Below are positions 1-7,190 of a DNA stretch of 64,000 bases, in pieces. Each line of letters begins with the position of its first letter. Within the stretch, counting starts at the first letter, position 1. The stretch covers positions 682,001-746,000 of the forward strand of contig OY979725.1 in NCBI GenBank assembly GCA_963855995.1. The letters are read 5' to 3'. The DNA is from Muricea muricata. Lineage: Eukaryota > Cnidaria > Anthozoa > Malacalcyonacea > Plexauridae. A model generated the notes under the pieces. It did no database searches. It was not told the origin of the DNA and worked only from the letters and a program-made list of their open reading frames with translations. The position numbers were made by a program, and so were the translations under genes.

Positions 1-945
1 TGGTGTAGAGCTGGTATGTCTGGCTATGTGTACGACTTTGAAGTGGTTGGATCCCAAGATGCAAAAGGACCACCATCTGGTGTAAACACTGGAAAATTTG
101 GGGAAAGTGAGAATGTTGTACTGAGGTTGAGCAATGCTTTGGAGGAAAACAAACATCAGTTGTTTTTTGATAATTATTTTTCAAGTCCTGAACTGATGGT
201 TCACCTAGCTTCTCTTGGAATTTTTGCAGCAGCAACCCTAAGATCTGACCGAATACGTGGTTGTCCTATTCCTTGTGAAAAGGATATGAAGAAAAATGGA
301 CGGGGTACTCTCAAAGAATTTACAGATTCAGAAGCTGGCTTGGCGCTCATTGCATGGTATGACAACCGAAGGGTGTTGATGATTTCCAACTTCTTAGGAA
401 AAGATCCTATTGGCAACTGCAAACGGTATGATGCAAAGAAGAAAGCCGTTATCTCTGTTGCTCGTCCAGCATGTGTAGAGTTATACAATAAGTTCATGGG
501 AGGAGTGGACAAAGCTGACATGTTCTTGTCACTCTACCGTACAAAATACCGAAGTAGAAAGTGGTACCACCGTATTGCCTTCCATTTGATGTCCCTGGCA
601 GCTGTAAATGCCTTTGTAACCTACCATGAAATTGGTGGGAATGGTTCATTTCTTGATTTTTTGGTGGATATATGCAGATGCCTACTTGCTGTTGATTTGC
701 AACGCTCAAATAACCTCAATAACCAACCCAATGCAGCACTTAGTGTCCAACGGTCACTGAAAGCAGACCAAGTACCCAAAGATGTACGTCTTGACCAATG
801 TAGCCACTGGCCAATTCAGTGCGACAAGCCTCAACGGTGTAAATACCATGGATGCGAGAGACGCACTAGGTTCTGCTGTTCAAAATGCCAAGTTTACCTT
901 TGTGTAACAGGGACAACATGCTTTTTGAACTTTCATGGCATGTAA
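1..945 (+). CDS. piggyBac-type transposase, C-terminal part
   Basis: The frame is already open at base 1 (reading WCRAG before the first Met at 16), so the N-terminus lies outside the window. Visible family marks are FFDNYFSS, which carries one of the acidic catalytic residues (Asp52 counting from the Met at 16), and NKFMGGVDKADM with the later acidic residue (Asp165 or Asp168), followed by the basic stretch RTKYRSRKWYHR. The last ~40 residues form a Cys/His-rich segment (CDKPQRCKYHGC, then CCSKC) like the ring/PHD-like finger that ends piggyBac transposases and binds the element's ends. There is no internal stop. It could be an active transposase or a domesticated PGBD-type gene; the adjacent terminal repeat favours a transposon copy. 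Confidence 0.9.
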   Translation, partial: WCRAGMSGYVYDFEVVGSQDAKGPPSGVNTGKFGESENVVLRLSNALEENKHQLFFDNYFSSPELMVHLASLGIFAAATLRSDRIRGCPIPCEKDMKKNGRGTLKEFTDSEAGLALIAWYDNRRVLMISNFLGKDPIGNCKRYDAKKKAVISVARPACVELYNKFMGGVDKADMFLSLYRTKYRSRKWYHRIAFHLMSLAAVNAFVTYHEIGGNGSFLDFLVDICRCLLAVDLQRSNNLNNQPNAALSVQRSLKADQVPKDVRLDQCSHWPIQCDKPQRCKYHGCERRTRFCCSKCQVYLCVTGTTCFLNFHGM

Positions 946-3674: not shown

Positions 3675-5663
3675 CTACATACATCTCTCTCTAATTGTGT
3701 GAACCACGTTGGGACATTGTCTTATTACTTCTTTAGAAGATCTATTCCTAATACAAACATCAGGCAAGTCTCGAGGGAACGTAAATGGAAACACTATGCT
3801 ACATTGCTTGCCATTGTGCGGAAATTTTACTTCAATATCCCTGGAGATAACATCTCTCTCCATGCCCACGTCTCTTCCATTCAGCAAAGTGGCGCTAATT
3901 TGAGTGCAGATTCTCCTAAATTTCTTTTCACCATCAAAAGTCTCGAAAAATCTAGGTGAAGCAGTTGATGTAATTCGGGGTGAGGAACGGCGAGGAATAT
4001 TATGGCGCGATTTTGGGCGTCCATGTACTAACGCTGAACCGAGTCGCCCCTGTCGTGCACTTGGGGTTCGTGTTGTTCTCTGACAGCCTGAACAAAAGCA
4101 ATGTTTCATCACTTGACCAACCACATCATCTGGGGAGGACAGTTTAGCCACACACATTGCTTTTCCATGTTCCTCCCTTTTCAGTTCAATGTCTCCTAAA
4201 CTGACAAATTCTATTATCCAATTTTGATAATTGTGGTAAAATAGAAGTTGTTTAGTTCTGCCTTTAAATTTCATCACTTCCTTTGTTTTAACTTTTGTAG
4301 AGTTCTTTAAATGAGTTTCTATGTTAGTTTTAATGCTTTCCACGAGGAGTTTACCCTCTCCTGTATCATACCAGGGTTGAGATCTTCTAGTTTCCATTTG
4401 GGAATTCTGTGATTTATCATATGGACTGTAGCGAACTTGTTTTGAATGAGAAGGGCGATCATGTCTTGAGAGAGATGGGGGTTGTGGTTTTGAAGGAGAG
4501 AAAGGAGGGTGTGGTGGGTCTTGTTTCTTGTGGGTGGGGGAGTAACTTCGTTTTGGGGATGAGGGCCTATGGTCTTTTCTCGAGGGAGCACGTTGATGGA
4601 CATTATTTTCATGAATTTGACATTCTCTACATTTGCAAGCTCTTCTTATATCCAGAATGACATTCTTAGAAAATAAATCATCTTTGTTAAGTGGATTAAC
4701 GATAATGGCAGGCTTGTTATCAAAGGACTCAGGAAAGTTGATACTCCAATTCTTTCCACCATGAGCAAACTTCATAGTCAAATTTTTGGAATTTTTATCT
4801 CGATCGAAAACAATGTTTTTGCTCATGGTCGCTGTGATTTCTTTGACAATCTCTTTCAGCTTTGTACGCCCTTCCTCTGTCTCGTACCACTGTGATACTC
4901 CATTGTTGTTTTCAGGAACTCGACGTTCTGAACGAAGACCGCCCCTGTCGTCCTCTGGTTTATCAACGTCCATTGGTTTGGGATCAAATGCATCAGTTTT
5001 TGCAGAGAAGTTTTGATGAGTGAGATGTGGTAAATGGGAATTTTTACTGGTGGAAATATATTTAGACTGGGTCGAAGGTCGGTTTTGGTACTCTAACGGT
5101 GCTCTTGAAGAGTATGCATCTGTTGCCAAACTATGTTCAATACCATTTCCAACACAAGCCACAACCAGCCCATGTTCACGAAAAGGGCTTCTTCCAGGAA
5201 TACTCATAACAGAGCCTGGTTCACATAAATGTCCACCTTTTGTAAACATATACGGATGAAGGACAACATTTTCTCGACCCGAGGTTCCTCTTGTTATATT
5301 TGCAATGATCATGATGTACCGTTTCAGGCCTTCTGGGAAGTTATTGCAAACTGTGCTTCTGTCCCCGGCACTGGGCTGAGTAAGACTCAAATGATGGTGC
5401 GAATGCCAACTTCCAATGTGGCAAAGCATAAATTCAGAATTGACATAGGTGCCAACTCTAGCTAGGTAGCTGGTATCCTGGTGAAATGAGACAGTGGTAC
5501 GTCTGCAATTCTTCCCAGGGCCAATGATAAGCTGGACAACTGGATCACCGTAGGCTCTCCATAAACCAAACAGATCTCCACCAGTTTCGATGTTTGGGTA
5601 GCACAACACAAAATCTTCCACTTTCCTCATTTCATTCTCAAAGATATGCAGTTTGAACGGCAT
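3675..5663 (-). CDS. JAMM/MPN-domain protein with three repeated C-terminal modules
   Basis: Intronless 662-residue protein starting at an ATG at 5663. Residues 1-140 look like a JAB/MPN metalloprotease domain: Glu26 in NIETGGDLFG, then GSWHSHHHLSLTQPSAGD with His87, His89, Ser98 and Asp101. This is the JAMM pattern, except that eight rather than seven residues separate HxH from Ser. The closest layout I know is the prokaryotic-type JAB (WHSHP...PSxxD), so it may cleave a ubiquitin-like isopeptide bond; that activity is inferred. Residues 257-350, 428-528 and 569-662 are three copies of one module: aromatic-Tyr/Phe-Glu/Asp-Thr start (WYETEEG, WYDTGEG, FFETFDG), helix, two strands, FP..F..P motif, and C.C..C at the end of copies 1 and 2. 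Low-complexity Ser/Pro/Arg linkers join them. I do not recognise the module; it resembles E2/RWD-type folds. Confidence 0.85.
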   Translation of the reverse strand: MPFKLHIFENEMRKVEDFVLCYPNIETGGDLFGLWRAYGDPVVQLIIGPGKNCRRTTVSFHQDTSYLARVGTYVNSEFMLCHIGSWHSHHHLSLTQPSAGDRSTVCNNFPEGLKRYIMIIANITRGTSGRENVVLHPYMFTKGGHLCEPGSVMSIPGRSPFREHGLVVACVGNGIEHSLATDAYSSRAPLEYQNRPSTQSKYISTSKNSHLPHLTHQNFSAKTDAFDPKPMDVDKPEDDRGGLRSERRVPENNNGVSQWYETEEGRTKLKEIVKEITATMSKNIVFDRDKNSKNLTMKFAHGGKNWSINFPESFDNKPAIIVNPLNKDDLFSKNVILDIRRACKCRECQIHENNVHQRAPSRKDHRPSSPKRSYSPTHKKQDPPHPPFSPSKPQPPSLSRHDRPSHSKQVRYSPYDKSQNSQMETRRSQPWYDTGEGKLLVESIKTNIETHLKNSTKVKTKEVMKFKGRTKQLLFYHNYQNWIIEFVSLGDIELKREEHGKAMCVAKLSSPDDVVGQVMKHCFCSGCQRTTRTPSARQGRLGSALVHGRPKSRHNIPRRSSPRITSTASPRFFETFDGEKKFRRICTQISATLLNGRDVGMERDVISRDIEVKFPHNGKQCSIVFPFTFPRDLPDVCIRNRSSKEVIRQCPNVVHTIRERCM

Positions 5664-6397
5664 GTCGTGTTACCTATTGCGAGTATCTGTCAATGTGACA
5701 CAGTTGAAATTGGATGAAGAGTGAACTATAAAACAAAACTGACCAGCTCTGCAAGTCCTTGACGTTTCCCGCTTAATGTCGTTATGTATTTCGAATTAGA
5801 AACCGTCGCTAAGGAAGGCATTTTGAGAAAATGAAAGTAAAGGCTCCAACAATTTCCGTTCTTTGAAAATTACACACAGCATGAAATATCAGACGTATAT
5901 CCGGTTGATTTAAGAACACATTAGCACAATTTTGTTCTTATTTAGTAGAAATATAGTTTTACTTACATTGAATAGCATGGATGCATCCATTTCGTTGCAA
6001 AATAACTGTAAACGGCGTTAAATAGCTTTTACAATCGATGGTTTAATTTTAAATCACCAAAATCTTCGGTTTTCGCGCTATTTTGCGTTGAACGTGCCTA
6101 AGGTATTTCCATCAAATTGCAAAATTAAGGAATGTTTTCTGTCAATTTTCCAGGCATATCTTTCAAGTTTTATATAAATTGCTGGCTTGCTAATCACTTA
6201 AATTTGTTTCAAGTACTTTAATTGGTTGTACAAATGAAGTTTTGTTTTGAGAAATAAAAATTTTGCTAGAGAACATATACATTTTGAGATATGCTGAAAT
6301 TTTCACAAAATTCCCAACCACAATTACTTGTAACTTCCTTGATTTTCCTGTGTTGGAGATGAGTTAATTGACACTTTCCAACAATCTTATAGAAGAA
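5664..6397. promoter_or_regulatory. divergent promoter region between JAMM-protein and METTL21-type genes
   Basis: 734 bp separate the two divergently read start codons. The stretch is AT-rich, without a TATA box that I can place with confidence and without coding potential. Both 5' UTRs must lie here. An upstream ATG at 6359 is followed at once by a stop (ATG AGT TAA). Confidence 0.45.
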
Positions 6398-7190
6398 ATG
6401 CTCAATTTAAAAAGTCGTTGGGTTAGGCAAGAATACAAAACTAACAAAGATAAATTCGAAAAGCCTTTTAAATTGACTATAGAGAATCGCCATTCTGAAA
6501 ATGCGGTGGAAACCCAACTTATTCTAAACCAAAATTACAAGGGCTTAGGATGTACTGTTTGGGATGGTAGCATAGCACTTGCAAAAATGTTTGAAAACGA
6601 CTTAGAACTTCCAAGAAGTTTAAAAAGACAAAACATTTTAGAGTTAGGAGCTGGATGTGGACTTGTTGGTCTAATGCTCTTTCACCTGGGTGCAAAGTTT
6701 GTCCTTTTGTCAGACATGGAAGTTTGTCTGCCAACTTTGAAAGCAAATGTGATAGAAAATACCACAACCTCATTGAGAAACAGTGTCAAGGTCATGTCGT
6801 ACACTTGGGGAGAGGCAACAACAGCATTGACAGAACCTCAAGGGAAATTTGATATTATTGTTGCTGCAGAAGTGTTGTATGAAGAAGCAGACTCAAGGCT
6901 TCTAGCACAAAGTGCTGTACAGTTGCTTGCGAAGGGCGGAGTCATGTTTGTATCCATGGGTAGAAACCGCAATGGCGAAACAGCATTCGTGGAAACCATG
7001 AACAGACATGGATATAAGACAGTTGAAGTGAGCATGTTTTGGCAAACTCACCATATTTCACATTCTTTTTCCTTCCTTATTTATTCCTACCATCTCTTTT
7101 TAGGTTCCAAAAGAAAAACTGCATCCCAAATACCAAGATGAAATCATTAAAATCATCAGACTGACAAAAAATGGCCAGTGTCCATATTGA
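6398..7190 (+). CDS. METTL21-type protein lysine methyltransferase (Methyltransf_16)
   Basis: Two exons, 6398-7027 and 7104-7190, joined by a 76-nt intron (GTGAGC...TTTTTAG), give 238 residues. The open frame extends upstream to 6368, but that codon is TTG; the first in-frame ATG is at 6398. Seven-beta-strand SAM-methyltransferase marks are LELGAGCGLVG (motif I), LSDME (acidic residue after strand 2), TWGEA and VAAEVLYEEAD (post-II motif). Upstream GLGCTVWDGSIALAKMF matches the family signature G..VWD.a..L. Family members methylate lysines on chaperones or eEF1A in the cytosol; the substrate here is unknown. Exon 2 ends IIRLTKNGQCPY, whereas reading through the intron would give an unrelated tail. 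Confidence 0.88.

What the first reader, a model, noticed from the sequence alone, without database searches (positions are those of the whole stretch)
3675..5663. JAMM-domain protein with three tandem E2/RWD-like modules
Sequence: an N-terminal JAMM pattern (Glu26, His87-x-His89, Ser98, Asp101) followed by three copies of a ~95-residue module at 257-350, 428-528 and 569-662. Each has an aromatic-aromatic-acidic-Thr start, a helix, two strands and an FP..F..P-type motif, and the first two end in C.C..C. Known: JAB/JAMM enzymes cut ubiquitin-like conjugates, and prokaryotic JABs occur beside E2-like proteins. Inference: the modules may be degenerate E2/UEV or RWD folds, making a protease that carries its own ubiquitin-like binding platform. 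I do not recall this architecture in animals.
Basis: partly seen in the sequence, partly recalled or inferred. Interest (0 to 1): 0.75.

Follow-up and report, generated by a model that had tools for sequence, protein, structure and literature searches.

The report
Bacterial-type ubiquitin-like deconjugase in coral-type animal
A coral-type animal carries a gene for a likely zinc protease with three tail modules that look like inactive ubiquitin-carrier domains; it descends from a bacterial protein-tagging system, and relatives of that system's activating and carrier enzymes are encoded in the same animal genome.

Summary
The minus-strand ORF 3675-5663 is an intact 662-residue frame with a JAMM site (E26, H87, H89, S98, D101; invariant in 18 of 18 aligned sequences, the window's included) and three mutually homologous ~95-residue modules.

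JAMM plus one such module also occurs in bacterial JABs of JAB-E2-E1 operons (Bacteroidales MAGs). A proteobacterial MAG and a Bradyrhizobium CBASS-type operon share the gene order, but their tail module is not clear. Animal-side JAMMs form one clade (91/95) beside the Bacteroidales/Spirochaetes-type JABs. The window's own genome also has relatives of the bacterial E2 (29 places) and E1 (one locus in two pieces, 53% and 42% identical). The E1, eight E2 pieces and many JAMMs share one cluster on the window's contig.

Best reading: an isopeptidase from a bacterial ubiquitin-like conjugation system acquired and expanded in Anthozoa, whose modules dock the modifier or charged E2. Bacterial origin is well supported; catalysis, modifier, substrate and any immune role are inferred. 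Ten open-access library searches listed no paper describing it.

The parts
3675..5663 (-). uninterrupted ORF, 662 aa, JAMM + three E2/RWD-like modules
   Evidence: identical match at G000:C10:685678-687663; no transcript evidence
5109..5663 (-). JAMM/JAB metalloprotease-type domain (residues 1-185)
   Evidence: family profile; PADLOC JAB E 1.1e-8; Pfam Prok-JAB 13.8 bits, below the cut-off of 25
5361..5588 (-). span holding the metal/catalytic residues E26, H87, H89, S98, D101
   Evidence: invariant in 18 of 18 and 26 of 26
4611..4898 (-). module 1 (residues 256-351), with CKCREC near its end
4074..4382 (-). module 2 (residues 428-530), FP..F..P lost, with CFCSGC near its end
3678..3968 (-). 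module 3 (residues 566-662), terminal C.C..C absent because of an early stop

Best explanation
The gene encodes a JAMM-type zinc isopeptidase (deconjugase) that descends from the JAB of a bacterial E1-E2-JAB ubiquitin-like conjugation operon. An ancestor of anthozoans acquired the system, kept E1, E2 and JAB, and multiplied E2 and JAB. In this paralogue the ancestral single E2-like (UEV/RWD-like) tail module has become three; the animal modules gained a Cys cluster. Proposed action: the JAMM site hydrolyses the (iso)peptide bond of a ubiquitin-like modifier, and the modules bind the modifier, the charged E2 or a polymeric conjugate and present it to the active site. Shown by sequence: intact JAMM residues, module homology to bacterial JAB tails, and relatives of the operon's E1 and E2 in the same genome. 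Inferred: catalysis, module fold, modifier identity, substrates, direction and date of transfer, and any role in immunity.
For: JAMM residues invariant; JAMM segment 1-125 is 78-86% identical to 11 relatives (P0002-P0012) while linkers run 8-59%. Bacterial JABs with JAMM plus a W..T..FP..FP..P module; animal versus bacterial module hhalign probability 97.3, E 1.8e-11, score 62, reversed controls 10.5 and 11.1. H-S-H-x8-S-x2-D spacing in 219 of 240 animal-side proteins (20 lack the motif, 1 has x9) and 118 of 120 bacterial-side ones (2 lack it). Animal-side JAMMs are one side of a branch, 91/95, next to 20 bacterial rows. The bacterial E2 matches 29 places in the animal genome, best E 1.4e-24; the putative catalytic Cys is present in 10 of 10 animal copies aligned. 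The bacterial E1 matches C10:11487428-11488876 in two pieces, 53% and 42% identity, and groups with bacterial E1s, apart from two other animal E1-like genes (100/99). E1, E2s and JAMMs share the C10:11.43-11.56 Mb region; three E2 pieces adjoin the C6 JAMM cluster.
Against: No activity, expression or structure data. The module fold rests on weak matches: the animal-only profile hit MEKK2/3 chains and no E2 in the PDB and gave probability 2.8 against the bacterial-type E2s. The 91/95 support is below the tool's star level, the root is a midpoint, most rows are unnamed, and P0362 and P0340 were flagged. Sixteen of 119 bacterial-side proteins gave no module match even at E<=10, P0269 of the L034 type among them. 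No modifier was identified, and none was sought in the animal. E1 and E2 were tested in this genome only. The window copy lies outside the clusters and lacks the last C.C..C. One paralogue (L006) has lost HxH.
Confidence: 0.6

Rival explanations
1. Domesticated eraser of ordinary host ubiquitin/NEDD8/SUMO conjugates, working like BRCC36-BRE in one chain and no longer tied to the co-acquired E1/E2.
For: BRE carries UEV-N, RWD and UEV-C domains and serves a JAMM enzyme, and a BRE-MERIT40 complex binds ubiquitin (PMC7692841 passages); this paralogue lies outside the E1/E2 clusters.
Against: Bacterial-type E1 and E2 relatives persist in the same genome beside JAMM paralogues, so a private substrate remains likely.
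Confidence: 0.25
2. The modules are not UBC/RWD-like but another alpha+beta fold (PB1-like, or a new zinc-binding domain using the F-x-H and C.C..C residues) that serves as a scaffold.
For: Animal-only profile A3: 6 of 9 PDB matches are MEKK2/MEKK3 chains (best E 0.017; PB1 constructs as I recall), none an E2; A3 versus bacterial-type E2s probability 2.8; 53 of 63 animal modules have C.C..C, 0 of 100 bacterial ones.
Against: The joint profile A6 matched mostly E2 chains, plus VPS37A and WDR59; UQ_con was the most frequent Pfam match (3 of 31; RWD 2, tied with AnkX_ins 2); A6 versus bacterial-type E2s probability 64, score 33, reversed 12.
Confidence: 0.15
3. No transfer into animals: an ancient eukaryotic gene lost outside Anthozoa, or transfer from animal to bacteria.
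For: The animal-side clade is one side of a branch and the root is unknown.
Against: All 12 rows with an organism name in the capped lists of the two animal-side searches are anthozoans; bacterial members come from several phyla and sit with E1 and E2 genes; 10 bacterial rows fall outside the animal + 20-row bacterial group under midpoint rooting.
Confidence: 0.07
4. The window copy is a decaying paralogue without function.
For: Terminal C.C..C absent and module 2 motif degenerate.
Against: 662-codon frame without stops and JAMM residues fully conserved.
Confidence: 0.05

Closest known systems
Bacterial JAB-E2-E1 operons, types 6a-6e (PMC1779556, passages read)
   Same: JAB with E1-like and E2-like partners; one operon type pairs a JAB-E1 fusion with inactive E2/RWD-like domains thought to bind the modifier
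   Different: The passages read do not describe a JAB followed by an E2/RWD-like tail as here; the present genes are in an animal genome with many paralogues
CBASS Cap2/Cap3 (PMC10097602, passages read)
   Same: JAB isopeptidase with E1/E2; a Bradyrhizobium plasmid relative sits beside a CBASS-type cyclase and nuclease effector
   Different: The Cap3 used there is a 156-residue JAB and Cap2 joins E1 and E2; here E1 and E2 are separate and the JAB has tail modules
BRCC36-ABRAXAS/ABRO1-BRE (BRCA1-A, BRISC; PMC7692841, passages read)
   Same: JAMM isopeptidase served by three UEV/RWD domains; its MPN- partners resemble the degenerate JAMM + JAMM relatives of this family
   Different: Separate subunits; here one chain, of bacterial descent
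BilABCD (PMC11354881, passages read)
   Same: Bacterial Ubl, E1, E2 and JAB/JAMM enzyme
   Different: No ISG15-like Ubl was recognised in the operons seen here

Membership tests
JAMM/MPN+ metalloprotease | Catalytic Glu, HxH, Ser, Asp set | tested here: met
   18 of 18 and 26 of 26 aligned sequences
JAMM/MPN+ metalloprotease | EXnHS/THX7SXXD spacing (PMC300881 abstract) | tested here: not met
   x8 instead of x7 in P0001, in 219 of 240 animal-side and 118 of 120 bacterial-side proteins
JAMM/MPN+ metalloprotease | Zinc-dependent isopeptidase activity | not testable with these tools
   no assay
Pfam Prok-JAB PF14464 | score above the curated cut-off | tested here: not met
   P0001 13.8 bits versus 25; some relatives pass, e.g. 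P0013 65.4 and P0025 46.5
UBC/UEV/RWD fold (modules) | profile match above cut-off | tested here: not met
   best shown: UQ_con 18.5 bits versus 27, RWD 17.0 versus 22.8
UBC/UEV/RWD fold (modules) | UBC alpha/beta fold | tested here: inconclusive
   structure job failed, then the tool was off; profile comparisons favour it weakly and not uniformly
Catalytic E2 (modules) | active-site Cys in the E2 position | tested here: inconclusive
   0 of 100 bacterial modules have C.C..C; the animal cysteines follow a likely C-terminal helix (by eye) and were not aligned to an E2 active site
Bacterial JAB-E2-E1 cassette | JAB with the tail module | tested here: met
   hhalign E 1.8e-11; tree; the tail is not clear in the L034 and Bradyrhizobium JABs
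Bacterial JAB-E2-E1 cassette | cognate E2 and E1 encoded with it | tested here: met
   same genome, clustered with paralogues but not beside the window gene
Bacterial JAB-E2-E1 cassette | ubiquitin-like modifier | not tested
   only a 63-66 aa ORF of unknown nature between E2 and E1 in two bacterial operons; not searched for in the animal
CBASS Cap3 | operon with CD-NTase and effector | tested here: inconclusive
   met for the Bradyrhizobium relative; no cyclase among five L030 proteins scanned with Pfam; not tested around the animal clusters

The most novel reading that the evidence does not exclude
An anthozoan runs a complete bacterial-type ubiquitin-like conjugation cascade (one E1, a family of E2s, a family of JAMM deconjugases with E2-like reader modules) acquired from bacteria and expanded like an immune gene family, with a modifier unlike eukaryotic ubiquitin.
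Probability: 0.5. Interest if true: 0.95.

Novelty: new variant of a known kind. Interest (0 to 1): 0.87.

Why it matters
If right, an animal has taken over the enzymes of a bacterial ubiquitin-like conjugation system, related to ones found in anti-phage operons, and multiplied the writer (E2) and eraser (JAMM) arms. It gives a direct, testable case of how a second, bacterial-type tagging pathway can work beside ubiquitin in an animal cell, and of how a JAMM enzyme gains several E2-like reader modules in one chain. It also predicts an unknown modifier that can be looked for.

Tried and rejected
A PDB sequence search with P0001 gave nothing; the JAMM profile gave one weak hit, 9ild_A 'Peptidase', E 0.0017. 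In viral contigs 54 stretches matched a pattern and none encoded a relative; phage records gave no match to P0001; so a phage or viral source is not supported. Plasmid records gave only two Bradyrhizobium records. PADLOC found no family for the Bradyrhizobium E2-like protein P0363; I call it E2-like from its place and alignment. Contamination was rejected: 7 of 8 window ORFs scanned match ordinary families such as COMM_HN, SOCS_box and Utp11, the contig is 13.9 Mb, and the E1 match is in two separate pieces, apparently exons. PADLOC hits name a JAB class and do not show a defence function. Literature: ten searches; titles and abstract starts in the capped listings show no description of this anthozoan family; the library lacks most subscription papers. 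Papers opened, passages only: PMC1779556, PMC7692841, PMC10097602, PMC11354881, PMC300881 (its abstract start also in the listing).

Full report
OBSERVATION. The minus-strand ORF 5663-3675 is uninterrupted and codes for 662 aa; one place in the animal genome that holds the window matches it at 100% (G000:C10, 453 Mb, 74 contigs). Pfam sees only a sub-threshold Prok-JAB (13.8 bits versus 25) and a PDB sequence search finds nothing. In alignments of 18 and 26 sequences, the window's included, E26, H87, S88, H89, S98 and D101 are invariant. Of 240 JAMM-like segments found in the 120 listed proteins of one search, 149 are strong (E below 1e-40) and 146 of these keep the full E-HSH-S-D set; none of the 91 weak ones does, though 25 or more of them are partial matches without those columns. 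By eye the weak ones generally precede a strong one in the same chain. The three tail modules are repeats of one domain (hhalign E 2.5e-23, 8.7e-28, 4.5e-19). Module 2 of this copy lacks FP..F..P, and module 3 lacks its last cysteines because of an early stop.

THE FAMILY. Homologue search 1 gave 459 proteins at E<=0.01, 120 listed; search 2, with a JAMM profile, gave 1113, 120 listed. Twelve listed rows (7 and 5) carry an organism name, and all twelve are anthozoans: Paramuricea, Dendronephthya, Acropora, Stylophora, Desmophyllum, Oculina, Pocillopora, Actinia (that these are anthozoans is general knowledge). The other rows are unnamed, so the taxonomic range is not fully seen. Architectures among the listed proteins: JAMM + three modules (the two octocoral-named rows and others), JAMM + one or two modules, JAMM-JAMM, and degenerate JAMM + JAMM. 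In the window's own genome 47 pieces match (exon by exon, best candidates only). Loci read closely show JAMM + two modules (L002-L006; in L004 the pieces lie in separate frames), three JAMMs in one frame (L007), and one JAMM with HxH lost but modules kept (L006). Against 11 relatives (P0002-P0012) the JAMM segment 1-125 is 78-86% identical, module 1 39-62%, module 2 28-56%, module 3 34-50%, linkers 8-59%.

BACTERIAL RELATIVES. A scan of genome contigs (84,980 species) with the JAMM profile found five loci: four Bacteroidales-type MAGs and one proteobacterial MAG. In L030, L032, L033 and L034 the gene order is JAB, E2-like, a gap, E1-like; L031 ends just after the match. For L030 and L034 Pfam gives ThiF E 6.9e-32 and 6.4e-36 and PADLOC names the three proteins JAB, E2 and E1-E2. 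The Bacteroidales JABs continue after the JAMM into a module, YWLS..ENKKEF..IVKYLK....V.....TVEV........FVFDKTFPDSPPKL, like the animal WYET..GG..LKEI......FP..F..P; the tails of the L034 and Bradyrhizobium JABs do not show it clearly. One search with these proteins gave 390 hits, 120 listed, 119 of them new; one Spirochaetes protein (P0321) holds JAB, module and an E2-like stretch in one chain (by eye). Single animal-module profiles score bacterial tails only weakly (103 of 119 with any match at E<=10, best among those printed 0.0017). Profile against profile the match is clear: hhalign probability 97.3, E 1.8e-11, score 62, reversed controls 10.5 and 11.1; M1 and M3 separately 1.7e-9 and 3e-9, M2 only 2e-4 (the bacterial profile holds the 100 of 117 tails in which a W start could be placed). 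JAMM spacing is x8, not the published x7 of EXnHS/THX7SXXD (PMC300881 abstract), in 219 of 240 animal-side proteins (20 without motif, 1 with x9) and 118 of 120 bacterial-side ones (2 without). A 56-row JAMM tree puts the 26 animal-side rows on one side of a branch (91/95, not starred), next to 20 Bacteroidales/Spirochaetes-type rows, with 10 rows of the proteobacterial/myxococcal/Bradyrhizobium type outside under midpoint rooting; P0362 is a long branch and P0340 has an odd make-up. Rows were assigned to animal or bacteria by the search that found them; most are unnamed. On a Bradyrhizobium plasmid JAB, E2-like, ThiF, a CBASS-type cyclase (PADLOC E 1.5e-72) and a nuclease effector (3.4e-91, read in part) follow each other.

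THE REST OF THE SYSTEM IS IN THE ANIMAL. The L030 E2 matches 29 places in the animal genome, 30-48% identity, best E 1.4e-24. Ten translated copies aligned with four bacterial E2s share HT...C...W; the Cys is present in 10 of 10 animal and 3 of 4 bacterial rows; other copies are broken or partial. The L030 E1 matches C10:11487428-11487970 (53%, E 2.2e-55) and C10:11488544-11488876 (42%, E 1.5e-22), apparently two exons, and two other places at 32% and 23%. In a 7-row tree the C10 E1 lies with the four bacterial E1s (100/99) and next to the Bacteroidales ones (93/93), apart from the two others, one of which has a UAE_UbL domain. The JAMM cluster C10:11.428-11.542 Mb spans the E1 and eight E2 pieces, with two more E2 pieces 13-15 kb beyond its end; three E2 pieces lie 2-7 kb from the C6 JAMM cluster; the C11 cluster of ten E2 pieces has no JAMM match. 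Two of 8 E2 clusters fall within 100 kb of a JAMM cluster, binomial P 5e-4, computed after seeing the data. The window gene is on the same contig, 10.7 Mb from that cluster, among ordinary animal genes (COMM_HN, LRR, SH2-SOCS_box, Utp11 and others).

IS THE MODULE E2-LIKE? For: UQ_con is the most frequent Pfam match of 31 animal modules (3, best 0.0016), then RWD (2, best 0.0066) level with AnkX_ins (2, 0.046), Prok-E2_E once (0.13), all weak; in the joint set one bacterial module matches Prok-E2_B (0.062), and UQ_con and RWD match one member each, at the same E-values as before. The joint profile A6 gives 100 PDB sequences at E<=10; of the 60 shown I count 48 named ubiquitin-conjugating enzymes or UBC core (largely one family, so not independent; best 0.13), plus VPS37A and WDR59, which I recall as UEV- and RWD-bearing. 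A6 versus the bacterial-type E2s: probability 64, score 33, reversed 12; bacterial modules alone 61; those E2s versus canonical animal E2s of this genome 74. Against: the four best A6 hits are unrelated proteins; the animal-only profile A3 hit MEKK2/3 chains (6 of 9, best 0.017) and no E2; A3 versus the bacterial-type E2s gave probability 2.8, and against RWD and canonical E2 34 and 17. I hold the UBC-like fold at about 0.8. The C.C..C tail looks like an animal addition: 53 of 63 animal modules of 75 aa or more, 0 of 100 bacterial ones. With the near-invariant F-x-H it could bind zinc (inference).

MECHANISM. In CBASS, Cap3 is an isopeptidase that releases conjugated cGAS, and mutating its putative catalytic residue E38 removes that activity (PMC10097602 passages). 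BRE supplies UEV-N, RWD and UEV-C domains to the complex of the JAMM enzyme BRCC36, and a BRE-MERIT40 complex binds ubiquitin (PMC7692841 passages). By analogy the window protein should be an eraser whose three modules read the modifier or the loaded E2. The degenerate JAMM + JAMM relatives resemble the MPN-/MPN+ pairs described there. None of this is tested by experiment.

NOVELTY. JAB-E2-E1 operons are a known bacterial kind (PMC1779556 passages). Not seen in the listings of ten searches of an open-access library: the JAMM + three-module chain, its bacterial descent, and bacterial-type E1, E2 and JAMM together in an animal genome. I call it a new variant of a known kind.

Noticed in passing
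L030:9340-9540 and L034:9419-9610: ORFs of 66 and 63 aa between E2 and E1 in the bacterial operons; the L034 one resembles by eye the N-terminus of the Bradyrhizobium E1 (L035). Candidate small modifier or E1 appendage; no fold comparison was made.
   Followed up: partly
L030:10789-12893, L032/L033:10746-13828: After the E1 comes a gene with an SH3_3 domain (E 4.1e-13 in L030) and further on genes that look by eye like radical SAM/SPASM proteins.
   Followed up: no
L006 (G000:C10:9597091-9598083): Paralogue with HxH changed to YSR yet two tail modules kept: a likely pseudo-enzyme with reader modules.
   Followed up: no
G000:C6:3325278-3327620 (L007): Three very similar JAMM domains in one frame followed by a long repetitive tail.
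   Followed up: no
P0045 and P0050-P0120 in part: Many relatives pair a degenerate JAMM-like domain with an intact one in one chain, like MPN-/MPN+ partners.
   Followed up: partly
G000:C11:2415292-2449119: Tandem array of ten bacterial-type E2 pieces with no JAMM match on that contig.
   Followed up: no
window 16-945 +: Transposase fragment (DDE_Tnp_1_7, E 1e-31); PiggyBac-like as I recall that family.
   Followed up: no
window 6368-7141 +: Methyltransf_16 lysine methyltransferase-like ORF (E 2.3e-27).
   Followed up: no
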